Shown here piece by piece: positions 32,998-35,729 of a DNA stretch of 35,729 bases. The stretch lies in assembly GCA_021740125.1 (NCBI GenBank), contig JAIPAJ010000015.1, positions 1 through 35,729 of the forward strand, read 5' to 3'. Source of the DNA: Leadbetterella sp. (GTDB lineage: Bacteria > Bacteroidota > Bacteroidia > Cytophagales > Spirosomataceae). The stretch's first letter is position 1, and each line of letters opens with the position of its first letter. Made by a program: the position numbers and the translations under genes. The notes under the pieces were generated by a model. That model had not been told where the DNA came from. It ran no database searches and saw only the letters and a list, made by a program, of their open reading frames with translations.

Positions 32998-33280
32998 GTA
33001 TTGTTTTTATTTATACGTAAAATTCCAAAATAAAAGCAGAATTGCCAATGGATATTCCATCTGATTCAAAATTTATATATTTCTTAGCATTCTGTTAAGT
33101 GCTTTTATTGACTTTTCTTAGAACGAGTTCATTTTGAAGATTGTGAAATATCAATTAAAATGAAAAAGGTTCACATAACTAATGTTTGAGTATAACGCAA
33201 ATCTATTATTTGTAAAAAATAAAGTACCGGCAAACAACATATGAAATTGTTCATTTGCAAAATCCTAATTTTATATTCTT

Positions 33281-33466
33281 ATTGTTCCATATAATTCCTG
33301 AACAGTCCGTTGTGAAATTTTGATTAATTCTAATGTTTCCATAACTTTCTAATCTTTATCAAAATTTCACAGAGGATCATTGTTCAGGAAGTGTTTTTTT
33401 GGTTCTTTTTTTCAAACGGTGCGACGACTCGCAAAAAAGAATGCCCGCCTGGCAAGGCACACAAAG
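33281..33466 (+). repeat. Structured intergenic repeat, copy 1
   Basis: About 186 bases, matching 34651-34837 in the same orientation with about 14 differences by hand alignment. Part one (33295-33390) is an imperfect hairpin: TTCCTGAACA pairs with TGTTCAGGAA at its base, and GTGAAATTTTGAT (33312-33324) pairs perfectly with ATCAAAATTTCAC (33358-33370). A seven-T run follows after GTG. Part two (33403-33441) has TTCTTTTTT pairing with AAAAAAGAA around a hairpin TGCGA-CGAC-TCGCA. Part three is TGCCCGCCTGGCAAGGCA, where TGCC can pair with either of two GGCA copies. No reading frame longer than a few dozen codons is present. It could be a non-autonomous mobile repeat or a shared leader RNA. Confidence 0.85.
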
Positions 33467-33533
33467 CATATAATTTTTACAAGTTTTAAAATTCGAAACT
33501 TTACATATTTCACCTAAAACCCCCAATTTTTAC

Positions 33534-33541
33534 TAATTTTG
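33534..33541 (+). promoter_or_regulatory. Candidate -7 box of first aldo/keto reductase
   Basis: TAATTTTG matches TAnnTTTG and lies 22 bases before the ATG. The -33 position has TTTC (33508-33511), one mismatch to TTTG and with 22-base spacing. If used, the repeat would be upstream of the transcript rather than in its leader. Confidence 0.4.
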
Positions 33542-33563
33542 AAAACTCAACCAAAACAAATAA

Positions 33564-34550
33564 ATGAATTTTAGAAGATTCGGTAAAACCAATCAAAATA
33601 TCTCAGAAATAGGCCTAGGCACATGGCAAGTGGGCGGCAAATGGGGTTCGGCATTCGACCACAAATTAGCCGAAAACATCCTCAATACAGCAGCAGATAA
33701 TGGCATAAACTTTATAGACACCGCTGATGTATACAGCGATGGTGAAAGCGAAAAAGCCATCGGTAATTTCTTAAAAACACGCTCTGAGAAGTTTTTTGTG
33801 GCTACAAAATGCGGCCGCCAAATTAACCCACACACCAACGAAGGCTACACACCTGCAGTTTTGCGAAAATATGTGGAAGACAGCCTAAAAAGACTACAAT
33901 TAGAAACACTAGACTTGGTTCAGCTTCACTGCCCTCCTACCCAAGTGTTTTATAGACCAGAGATTTTCGGTCTTTTCGAGGACCTCAAAACCGAAGGAAA
34001 AGTACAAAATCTGGGCATAAGTGTTGAAAAAGTAGAAGAGGCACTGAAAGGAATTGAATTTGACAATGTGGTTTCTGTTCAAATCATCTTCAACATGTTT
34101 CGTCAGCGGCCATCCGAATTGTTTTTCGAACAAGCGAAAAAGAGAGATGTTGGCGTTATCGTCAGAGTGCCGTTGGCTAGTGGACTTTTGACAGGAAAAT
34201 ACACCAAAGATACCAGTTTCGAAGCGGGAGACCATCGCTTTTTCAATCGAAATGGCGAAATGTTCGACAAAGGCGAGACTTTCTCAGGCATAGATTATAA
34301 CACTGGTTTAGAAGCAGTTGCAGAGCTCAAAGAATTATTCTCTGGCCAATTGAATTTGGCAGAAATAGCTTTGAGATGGATTTTGATGTTCGAGAATGTG
34401 AGTACGGTTATTCCAGGAGCGTCCAGACCTGAGCAAGTAACAGAAAACCTCAAATGCTTACAACAGCAAGCATTGAGCGACCTACAAATGAACCAAGTAA
34501 AAGAGATTTACCTTAAATATTTCAAAAATACAATACACCAGTGGTGGTAA
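33564..34550 (+). CDS. Aldo/keto reductase
   Basis: 328 residues, cytosolic NADPH-dependent oxidoreductase with a TIM barrel. The catalytic tetrad is visible: Asp and Tyr in NFIDTADVYSDGESE (residues about 50-64), Lys in FVATKCGRQ and His in LVQLHCPPTQ. The cofactor-binding end is STVIPGASRPEQVTENLKCL. Substrate unknown. Its DNA is GC-richer than most of the window in places (34 of 60 bases G or C at 33601-33660 by hand count). A repeat copy precedes it and another follows it. Family assignment is firm. Confidence 0.93.
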   Translation: MNFRRFGKTNQNISEIGLGTWQVGGKWGSAFDHKLAENILNTAADNGINFIDTADVYSDGESEKAIGNFLKTRSEKFFVATKCGRQINPHTNEGYTPAVLRKYVEDSLKRLQLETLDLVQLHCPPTQVFYRPEIFGLFEDLKTEGKVQNLGISVEKVEEALKGIEFDNVVSVQIIFNMFRQRPSELFFEQAKKRDVGVIVRVPLASGLLTGKYTKDTSFEAGDHRFFNRNGEMFDKGETFSGIDYNTGLEAVAELKELFSGQLNLAEIALRWILMFENVSTVIPGASRPEQVTENLKCLQQQALSDLQMNQVKEIYLKYFKNTIHQWW

Positions 34551-34553
34551 TCT

Positions 34554-34574
34554 AAAGCTTCAAGCTGTTTTTTA
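34554..34574 (+). terminator. Weak terminator after the first aldo/keto reductase
   Basis: AGCTT-C-AAGCT (34556-34566) followed by GTTTTTT forms a short hairpin with a T-run. The stem is short, so termination may be partial. Confidence 0.4.
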
Positions 34575-34650
34575 AAGCACTTAAAAAATAGTCACTTATA
34601 CCATAATTTTAGGCTTAAATTGTATTTGTATGATCAGTCAATAAATACTA

Positions 34651-34837
34651 ATTGTTCTTAATAATTCCTGAACAGTCCGTTGGAAAATTTTGATTGTTTC
34701 AAATGTTTCCATAAATTTCTAATGTTTATCAAAATTTTACAGAGGATCATTGTTCAGGAAATGTTTTTTTTGGTTCTTTTTTTCAAACGGTGCGACGACT
34801 CGCAAAAAAGAATGCCCGCCTGGCAAGGCACGCAAAG
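34651..34837 (+). repeat. Structured intergenic repeat, copy 2
   Basis: Same architecture and orientation as 33281-33466, starting 1370 bases downstream of it. The outer stem TTCCTGAACA / TGTTCAGGAA (34665-34674 and 34751-34760) is unchanged. In the inner stem a G-C pair of copy 1 (33314/33368) is A-T here (34684/34738), a compensatory double change, while a neighbouring T-A has become G-A. The tail from about 34772 (GGTTCTTTTTTTCAAACGGT and onward through TGCCCGCCTGGCAAGGCA) is identical in both copies. The repeat ends 43 bases before the next reductase start. Confidence 0.85.
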
Positions 34838-34880
34838 TTTATTATTTTATACACTATTCTTAACAAAACCTAACATTCTT

Positions 34881-35729
34881 ATGTACATAGCAGACGAAAA
34901 AAGATACGAACAAATAAGCTACAGACGTTGTGGCAAAAGCGGCATCAGGTTGCCAGAAATTTCGTTGGGCTTATGGCACAATTTCGGGGGTGTGGATACC
35001 TTCGAAAACTACCGAGCTATACTCAGAACGGCATTCGACAAAGGCCTGACGCACTTTGACCTCGCCAATAACTACGGTACACCTCCAGGCTCGGCCGAAG
35101 AGAATTTTGGCCTTTTGATGAAAAAAGACTTTGCCGCTTACCGCGACGAACTCATCATATCGTCAAAAGCAGGCTACCTGATGTGGCCTGGCCCGTATGG
35201 TGAATGGGGTTCAAGAAAGTACATCATAGCCAGCTGCGACCAAAGCCTCAAACGCATGGGTCTTGATTATGTGGACATATTTTACTCGCACCGCCCAGAC
35301 CCCGACACCCCGATGGAGGAAACCATGGGTGCATTGGACACGCTCGTTAGACAAGGAAAAGCACTGTATGTGGGTTTATCTAACTACGACGCCGACCAAA
35401 CCAAAGAAGCCTTGGCGATACTGAAGCAACTCGGTACGCCATGCCTCATACACCAGCCGAAATACTCGATGCTCGTGCGTGACCCAGAAAACGGACTATT
35501 GGATGTTTTGGGTGAAAATGGCGTGGGTTGTATCCCTTTCTCGCCATTGGCACAAGGTATCTTAACCAACAAATACCTCCACGGCATTCCTGAGGACTCC
35601 AGAGCCGGAAAATTAACGGGATTTTTGCAAAAAGACCAAGTGACCACCGAGACCATCAGCAAAGTAAAAGCCCTACACGAAATAGCCGAAAAACGAGGCC
35701 AAAGCCTAGCCCAAATGGCCATAGCTTGG
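34881..35729 (+). CDS. gpr: L-glyceraldehyde-3-phosphate reductase-type aldo/keto reductase, 3' truncated
   Basis: 283 residues are visible; the window ends before the stop, and about 50 or more residues are missing. MYIADEKRYEQISYRRCGKS followed by GIRLPEISLGLWHNFGG matches the YghZ/Gpr subfamily (aldo/keto reductase 14 type), which in E. coli reduces L-glyceraldehyde 3-phosphate and helps with methylglyoxal detoxification. Catalytic residues: Asp and Tyr in THFDLANNYGTPPGSAEENF, Lys in IISSKAGYLMWPGPYG, His in IFYSHRPDPDTPMEET. The frame is open upstream to an ATG at 34812 inside the repeat tail, but the family start fits 34881. G+C is clearly higher than in most of the window (36, 35 and 30 of 60 bases in three hand-counted blocks). 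Confidence 0.93.
   Translation, partial: MYIADEKRYEQISYRRCGKSGIRLPEISLGLWHNFGGVDTFENYRAILRTAFDKGLTHFDLANNYGTPPGSAEENFGLLMKKDFAAYRDELIISSKAGYLMWPGPYGEWGSRKYIIASCDQSLKRMGLDYVDIFYSHRPDPDTPMEETMGALDTLVRQGKALYVGLSNYDADQTKEALAILKQLGTPCLIHQPKYSMLVRDPENGLLDVLGENGVGCIPFSPLAQGILTNKYLHGIPEDSRAGKLTGFLQKDQVTTETISKVKALHEIAEKRGQSLAQMAIAW

What the first reader, a model, noticed from the sequence alone, without database searches (positions are those of the whole stretch)
33281..34837. Pair of ~186-bp direct repeats with conserved secondary structure and a compensatory base change
Two copies (33281-33466 and 34651-34837), same orientation, about 14 differences. Each has an outer 10-bp inverted repeat (TTCCTGAACA / TGTTCAGGAA), a 13-bp inner stem (perfect in copy 1), a T-run, then an invariant tail with a TGCGA/TCGCA hairpin inside a TTCTTTTTT/AAAAAAGAA stem and a TGCC segment with two alternative GGCA partners. 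The inner stem changes from G-C to A-T on both sides between copies, which suggests selection on pairing rather than on sequence, though one event is weak evidence. No known element was recognised. It could be a structured RNA leader, a MITE-like mobile element or a REP-type repeat.
Basis: partly seen in the sequence, partly recalled or inferred. Interest (0 to 1): 0.72.

Follow-up and report, generated by a model that had tools for sequence, protein, structure and literature searches.

The report
Hairpin-core mobile repeat of Lacihabitans
Two similar stretches upstream of two enzyme genes belong to a family of small non-coding mobile DNA elements in Lacihabitans bacteria; their folded core is kept intact by matching changes on both sides of its stems, even in these two copies, whose jumping ends have decayed, which suggests that the fold itself matters.

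Summary
In detail: two copies (33281-33466, 34651-34837) with 13 substitutions and one indel, folded as described. They belong to a dispersed element found in 10 of 10 genomes held of the genus (Lacihabitans, by contig titles) and, strongly, in four other genera of the family. In 87 copies 96.6% of cells pair; 28 of 40 pairs have changes on both sides; 655 such cells against 217 +/- 11 in shuffles. The core lies inside a MITE of about 315-345 bp: inverted ends CTAAAGTTTCGG/CCGAAACTTTAG at near-fixed offsets, perfect 7-9-bp target duplications in 7 of 21 copies with an end pair, empty sites, and one decayed IS4-type insertion sequence with the same ends. Both window copies have degenerate ends yet pair at 79 of 80 cells. 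Nearly fixed wobbles and an excess of G-T over A-C point to the + strand as the folded one; the next gene is sense in 48 of 65 sites. The window cores resemble each other because one was apparently overwritten by the other. So it is a MITE with a maintained fold; 'RNA leader' and 'MITE' are not exclusive. Its function, perhaps a hairpin terminator or processing site, is inferred only.

The parts
33179..33504 (+). copy 1, whole MITE with degenerate terminal inverted repeats
   Evidence: end-pair scan: length 326, 3 and 2 mismatches to the consensus ends; letters checked
33179..33190 (+). left inverted end of copy 1, degenerate (CTAATGTTTGAG vs CTAAAGTTTCGG)
33281..33466 (+). copy 1, structured core (covariance model match, 172.3 bits)
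33295..33390 (+). copy 1 long hairpin: outer stem, GTCCGTT / AGAGGATCATT internal part, inner 13-bp stem, variable apex
   Evidence: fold; covariation
33391..33400 (+). copy 1 GTG plus a run of 7 T directly after the long hairpin
   Evidence: sequence; a run of 6-8 T was found in 94 of 100 copies
33401..33442 (+). copy 1 T/A-rich stem with a GC-rich insert (TGCGACGACTCGCA) in its loop
   Evidence: fold; helices 4-6
33443..33466 (+). copy 1 tail with the GCC..GGC hairpin; on the - strand flagged as terminator-like (hairpin then T's)
   Evidence: (helix 7)
33493..33504 (+). right inverted end of copy 1, degenerate (TCGAAACTTTAC vs CCGAAACTTTAG)
34552..34563 (+). left inverted end of copy 2, degenerate (CTAAAGCTTCAA)
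   Evidence: read by eye at the expected offset, letters checked; the scan did not report a pair for copy 2
34651..34837 (+). copy 2, structured core (173.3 bits)
34864..34874 (+). right inverted end of copy 2, strongly degenerate (CAAAACCTAAC)
   Evidence: read by eye, letters checked; weak
33564..34550 (+). aldo/keto-reductase-like gene downstream of copy 1 (name recalled from the sequence, not searched)
   Evidence: ORF
34881..35729 (+). second aldo/keto-reductase-like gene downstream of copy 2, runs off the window (name recalled; start is an in-frame ATG read by eye)
   Evidence: ORF; in G009 the two genes are about 4 bases apart with no element between

Best explanation
A family of non-autonomous transposable elements (MITEs) with IS4-type ends. 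Each carries a core of about 172 nt that folds, on the + strand, into a long interrupted hairpin followed by a T-run, a T/A-rich stem and a small GC hairpin. SHOWN: dispersal, inverted ends, target duplications, sites empty in relatives, retention at orthologous sites, pairing kept through double changes, a bias to sense orientation upstream of a gene, a + strand asymmetry. INFERRED: cores are partly homogenised between copies by recombination (the two window cores are an example), and the fold acts at the RNA level where the site is transcribed, most likely as a hairpin/U-run terminator or an RNase III-type processing site that separates the upstream transcript from the downstream gene, much as ERIC and NEMIS MITEs are said to act. 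My odds: about 0.85 for the identity (MITE with a maintained fold), about 0.35 for this RNA mechanism.
For: Copies in 10 of 10 genus genomes and 25 of 200 family genomes, the 10 included. Ends CTAAAGTTTCGG/CCGAAACTTTAG at near-fixed offsets; 21 of 100 copies with an end pair under a loose threshold, 7 of them with perfect 7-9-bp duplications. The same ends and a 7-bp repeat bound a 1.6-kb element in G002 with a broken IS4-family transposase. Sites empty in G009 (one) and G003 (three). Fold: 28 of 40 pairs with double changes, 655 cells vs 217 +/- 11 shuffled and 43-135 when slid. In 20 comparisons at 14 orthologous sites 66 pairs changed on both sides and stayed paired, 13 changed on one side and stayed paired, 35 broke on one side, 2 on both. 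Pairing 96.9% in 9 copies with good ends, 96.6% in 75 others (ends decayed, of another kind or not recognised), 79 of 80 cells in the window copies. Strand: 41 G-T/T-G against 10 A-C/C-A cells outside two nearly fixed wobbles (counts; p 1.5e-5, rows not independent); those wobbles are G-T in 69 and T-G in 86 of 87 copies. Downstream gene sense in 77 of 100 as called, 48 of 65 after thinning (p 1.5e-4). T-run of 6-8 in 94 of 100.
Against: No excess of Bacteroidetes-type promoter motifs upstream (7 of 100 with a match, 10.0 expected); a slight excess downstream of the core instead (14 against 7.3), so the core may often lie outside the next gene's transcript (mononucleotide shuffles, windows that can run into genes). 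17 of 65 sites are antisense to the next gene, 8 of them between convergent genes. Downstream genes share no obvious pathway (by eye). Wobbles are rare at variable positions, unusual for an RNA. The parent IS is known from one decayed copy. The double-change counts are inflated by relatedness and by an alignment fitted to the model.
Confidence: 0.6

Rival explanations
1. Plain MITE whose palindrome is maintained by mutation, not selection: template switching and hairpin-directed repair copy changes from one arm to the other, and gene conversion swaps hairpin tips between copies.
For: At the AKR1 and MATE sites the hairpin tip cannot be told from shuffled sequence (56% and 72%; shuffled means 62 and 61, maxima 89 and 85) while the arms are 78-93% identical; the window copies share the core only (left arms 63% vs 63% shuffled, right arms 70% vs 66%); few wobble intermediates.
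Against: Mismatched or bulged stretches around GTCCGTT and AGAGGATCATT are invariant or nearly so in the 26-copy alignment (other subfamilies vary there), and the T-run length is kept; palindrome repair should have removed the mismatches. Other subfamilies with unrelated stem sequences keep the same order of parts (by eye). G-T over A-C asymmetry.
Confidence: 0.25
2. A single-stranded DNA hairpin read by a protein, for example a transposase or recombinase, rather than an RNA.
For: Almost only Watson-Crick changes and kept mismatches; tandem arrays in G001 and opposite orientation at two orthologous sites (sulfatase L004/L022, recN L030/L075) show DNA-level activity.
Against: No match at E below 0.01 around 30 of the 53 Y1-transposase matches; no partner gene found, and no other kind of partner was sought.
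Confidence: 0.2
3. Invertible promoter segment (phase variation) bounded by the CTAAAGTTT repeats.
For: At the sulfatase site the repeat-bounded segment lies in opposite orientation in G000 and G004, and the recN site also differs.
Against: The other compared orthologous sites keep the orientation of the corresponding element. Duplications and empty sites fit transposition. No invertase gene was sought.
Confidence: 0.07
4. Riboswitch or other leader controlling one regulon.
For: Frequent sense upstream position and covarying structure.
Against: Diverse neighbours (aldo/keto reductase, sulfatase, lipoamide dehydrogenase, MATE, recN; names recalled); mobile ends; no Rfam match at the element.
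Confidence: 0.05

Closest known systems
ERIC / NEMIS-type bacterial MITEs (passages of PMC2229807, and PMC3733652)
   Same: short, non-coding, intergenic; MITEs as described there have TIRs, and their transcripts are said to form stable stem-loops that affect neighbouring mRNAs (RNase III proposed for NEMIS, RNase E and orientation for ERIC)
   Different: further structural domains after the hairpin; many double changes in stems; other ends and hosts; no RNA data here
BrickBuilt MITE of Porphyromonas gingivalis (passages of PMC4596501)
   Same: Bacteroidetes MITE, intergenic, predicted stem-loops, ends resembling those of an IS; that paper too remarks that SNPs might suggest selected and compensatory mutations
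   Different: built of 23-nt tandem repeats; IS5-type ends; no fixed multi-hairpin core in the passages seen
MITECca01 of Cardinium (passages of PMC9769881)
   Same: IS-derived MITE, mostly intergenic (same phylum: recalled)
   Different: IS982 parent; the words 'secondary structure' and 'hairpin' do not occur in that text
REP / REPIN with RAYT transposases (PMC3733652 passages; PMC3116915 listing only)
   Same: dispersed palindromes
   Different: REPs are 20-40 bp (abstract start); no Y1 transposase beside this element among those scanned. Small GC-rich inserts inside some copies look REP-like

Membership tests
MITE | short, non-coding, many dispersed copies | tested here: met
   no coding capacity was tested beyond the ORF list
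MITE | terminal inverted repeats at fixed ends | tested here: met
   11 of 100 copies with at most 3 mismatches over both ends, 21 under a looser limit; in the rest the ends are degenerate, of another kind or not found
MITE | target-site duplication | tested here: met
   perfect 7-9 bp in 7 of 21 copies with an end pair, two of them orthologous; score 7 or more in 4 of the 11 best against 2.25% of mismatched pairs; other good copies show partial or no duplication
MITE | empty site in a relative | tested here: met
   one in G009, three in G003; the exact pre-insertion joint was not resolved, so loss is not excluded
MITE | parent IS with the same ends | tested here: met
   one decayed IS4-type copy in G002; no intact copy found
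REP/REPIN with RAYT | repeats beside a Y1 transposase | tested here: not met
   30 loci of 53 matches in 9 genomes, best E 0.019
Known structured RNA (Rfam 15) | match to a curated family | tested here: not met
   at the element only matches far below the gathering scores
Cis-regulatory RNA leader | transcribed as leader of the downstream gene | not testable with these tools
   no RNA data; no promoter-motif excess upstream
Cis-regulatory RNA leader | sense orientation upstream of genes | tested here: inconclusive
   48 of 65, biased but not exclusive
ERIC/NEMIS-like function | RNase cleavage of the transcript hairpin | not testable with these tools
   needs bench work
Integron attC array | integrase and cassette array | not tested
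   considered because of same-direction spacing; no integrase search made

The most novel reading that the evidence does not exclude
The core is a mobile RNA (or + strand ssDNA) module that is selected on its own, rides on different sets of transposon ends (CTAAAGTTTCGG in one group, TACTGGYRTCC in others, the latter seen by eye only), is overwritten between copies by recombination, and is kept upstream of genes as a portable expression insulator across a bacterial family.
Probability: 0.25. Interest if true: 0.75.

Novelty: new variant of a known kind. Interest (0 to 1): 0.5.

Why it matters
If true, the fold of a MITE is kept through many double changes while its transposition ends decay, and apparently on two kinds of transposon ends. 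That gives a natural system for asking whether MITE folds are selected for the host, for the element, or arise from hairpin repair. It also warns that covariation alone does not separate an RNA gene from a mobile palindrome.

Tried and rejected
Rfam, window region and eight loci including other subfamilies: nothing credible at the element. REP/RAYT: Y1 transposases in 9 of 10 genomes, but the element is not beside the 30 of 53 matches scanned. Promoter upstream of the core: no excess. Common regulon: neighbours differ. Terminator scan: flags only the small GC hairpin on the - strand; its rules (loop 3-8) exclude the long hairpin. Intact parent IS: only the decayed copy itself plus weak matches. 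Order-wide: 16 of 291 genomes, outside the family only weak matches (best E 1.8e-9), not followed up. Papers: seven searches on MITEs, exaptation, Lacihabitans, covariation or RNase III listed no paper whose title or abstract start describes this element; searches returned none at all.

Not done: tree-aware covariation test, RNA-seq, integrase or invertase search, search for an IS with the second kind of ends, test of replication-strand bias as a cause of orientation.

Rows dropped and limits: the loci fetched are a choice among listed matches, and the list was capped. Of 162 matches, 100 were used; left out were 26 matches of the G001 arrays (L037-L040) and 36 others, mostly opposite-strand echoes of the palindrome, with at least two weak separate matches (L044:728-901, L058:6239-6423). 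One search used 65 of the 100: 25 entries (orthologous repeats, and both members of the two inverted sites) and the remaining ones under 80 bits were removed; one gene call (window 34651) was corrected by hand. Gene calls are longest-ORF calls from ATG and some are wrong. In one search copies too near a locus start were skipped. In one search the 3 copies of L036 were left out of the end-status comparison, and several of its 20 comparisons share a site. In one search the SDR line compared a copy with itself by mistake and is not used. Alignment A3 is fitted to a model whose structure I drew partly from RNAalifold and partly by hand, so its pair counts lean towards it; the MAFFT alignment gave 16 of 30 predicted pairs with double changes.

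Full report
The observation. The outer stem, inner stem, T-run, T/A stem and tail hairpin are present. The + strand fold has z = -5.5 and the - strand z = -4.5 against dinucleotide shuffles.

Copies elsewhere. In the window's own draft genome (267 contigs, completeness 77%) a DNA search found nine places, one of them the opposite-strand echo of copy 1. In the genus, DNA search found it in 7 of 10 genomes and a covariance model in 10 of 10 (G001 and G005 only with weaker, divergent matches). In the family 25 of 200 genomes, 7 of 36 genera, had a match at E 0.001, the 10 of the genus included; matches below E 1e-9 outside the genus came from G023, G028, G030, G079, G097, G118 and G127, four genera. 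Contig titles in a scan of named genomes point to Lacihabitans; equating G numbers with strains rests on equal contig lengths, and G030 with Arcticibacterium luteifluviistationis on equal genome length (abstract start of PMC6258284 in the listing).

Pairing. On 26 copies aligned by sequence, 16 of 30 predicted pairs show kept double changes. On 87 copies aligned to the model, 28 of 40 pairs do; 655 cells against 217 +/- 11 in shuffles and 43 to 135 when the partner is slid. All nine outer pairs vary by double changes. Relatedness inflates these counts, since subfamilies share changes; but subfamilies with quite different stems keep the same layout (by eye). In 20 comparisons at 14 orthologous sites, 66 pairs changed on both sides and stayed paired, 13 changed on one side and stayed paired, 35 broke on one side and 2 on both. 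Some of these comparisons involve replaced subfamilies rather than changes in place, and some share a site.

Which strand. Two wobble pairs are nearly fixed: G-T in 69 of 87 and T-G in 86 of 87 copies. Elsewhere 41 cells are G-T or T-G and 10 are A-C or C-A (summed). Both favour folding of the + strand, as RNA or as single-stranded DNA. Wobbles are nevertheless rare at variable positions, which fits a DNA hairpin or hairpin repair better than a typical RNA.

Ends. Inverted repeats CTAAAGTTTCGG / CCGAAACTTTAG lie about 107-110 nt before and 27-29 nt after the modelled core in the best copies. Of 100 copies, 21 had an end pair under a loose limit and 11 with at most 3 mismatches over both ends; the best-preserved are 315-346 bp, three with inserts about 400 bp. 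Seven of the 21 have a perfect 7-9-bp duplication, two of them orthologous; in the 11 best copies 4 scored 7 or more, against 2.25% of mismatched pairs. Copy 1 of the window has degenerate ends and no clear duplication. The ends of copy 2 were read by eye and are weak. A 1.6-kb element in G002 with the same ends carries a transposase broken into pieces; one piece passes the Pfam cut-off for DDE_Tnp_1, and the pieces match the NCBI IS4-family model best, below its whole-protein cut-off. Several other subfamilies have a different end, TACTGGYRTCC (seen by eye, no statistics).

Insertion history. Many orthologous sites keep an element in two to four species; the site of copy 1 is occupied in G009 and G004 too, that of copy 2 in G004. 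Empty sites: G009 between the two aldo/keto-reductase genes, about 4 bases apart there, and three sites in G003; loss is not excluded. At the TetR site G004 has one subfamily, G009 another and G003 none. At the sulfatase and recN sites the element lies in opposite orientations in two species. These gene names are recalled from the protein sequences.

Core replacement. At the AKR1 site the arms of the window copy and of the G009 copy are 78-80% identical and the flanks 89-94%, but the hairpin tips are at shuffled level (56% against 62%). The core of window copy 1 is instead 93% identical to that of copy 2, while the arms of copies 1 and 2 are at or near shuffled level (left 63% against 63%, right 70% against 66%). 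The simplest reading is gene conversion of one core by the other. At the MATE site the arms are 92-93% identical and the tip 72% (shuffled mean 61%, maximum 85%); at PSD arms 77-80%, tip 73% (shuffled mean 58%, maximum 83%). At the Lpd and AKR2 sites the tips are conserved (91% and 89%).

Context. Of 100 copies the next gene was called sense in 77; after thinning 48 of 65 (p 1.5e-4), with 29 against 9 between co-directional genes (p 0.0017). The upstream gene is sense in 37 of 64. The median distance to a sense start codon is 110 nt over the 77 unthinned cases. Convergent and antisense cases exist, so it is not obligatorily a leader. Promoter motifs TAnnTTTG are not enriched upstream (7 of 100, 10.0 expected) and slightly enriched downstream (14 against 7.3).

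Mechanism. On the + strand a long hairpin is followed by a U-run, and the tail hairpin followed by T's on the - strand was flagged by the terminator scan in both window copies. I therefore prefer a terminator or processing module. Delihas's review (passages of PMC2229807) reports RNase III regulation proposed for NEMIS and orientation-dependent RNase E effects for ERIC. This is analogy; nothing here measures RNA.

Verdict. A MITE family with a strongly maintained pairing core: a new variant of a known kind. The structural evidence is strong, the identity as a mobile element is strong, and the function is open.

Noticed in passing
L038, L037, L039, L040 (genome G001): Tandem arrays of a shorter relative of the core (about 110-130 nt matched), mostly 230-300 bp apart, the matches in one direction within each fetched stretch, with GC-rich inserts in the second stem.
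   Followed up: partly
L086, L017, L021, L030, L034, L036: Small GC-rich hairpins (for example around CGGGCCGCCGGTGCGG) inserted into bulges and loops of the core, and the GC-rich insert in the T/A loop of both window copies; they look like REP-type repeats nested in the MITE.
   Followed up: no
L096-L125: Diverse Y1 transposases (PF01797) in 9 of 10 genomes; many of the 30 fetched loci hold their own direct repeats.
   Followed up: partly
L086:2437-2609, L068:2671-2861, L089: The same site upstream of a TetR-like gene (name recalled) holds one subfamily in G004, another in G009 and none in G003.
   Followed up: partly
L126:1561-3162: Decayed IS4-type insertion sequence with the MITE's ends and a 7-bp duplication; the protein search found no other close copy in the 10 genus genomes.
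   Followed up: yes
G387, G220, G262, G382: Weak, mostly ~90-120-nt matches in small genomes of another family of the order; may be unrelated AT-rich hairpin repeats.
   Followed up: no
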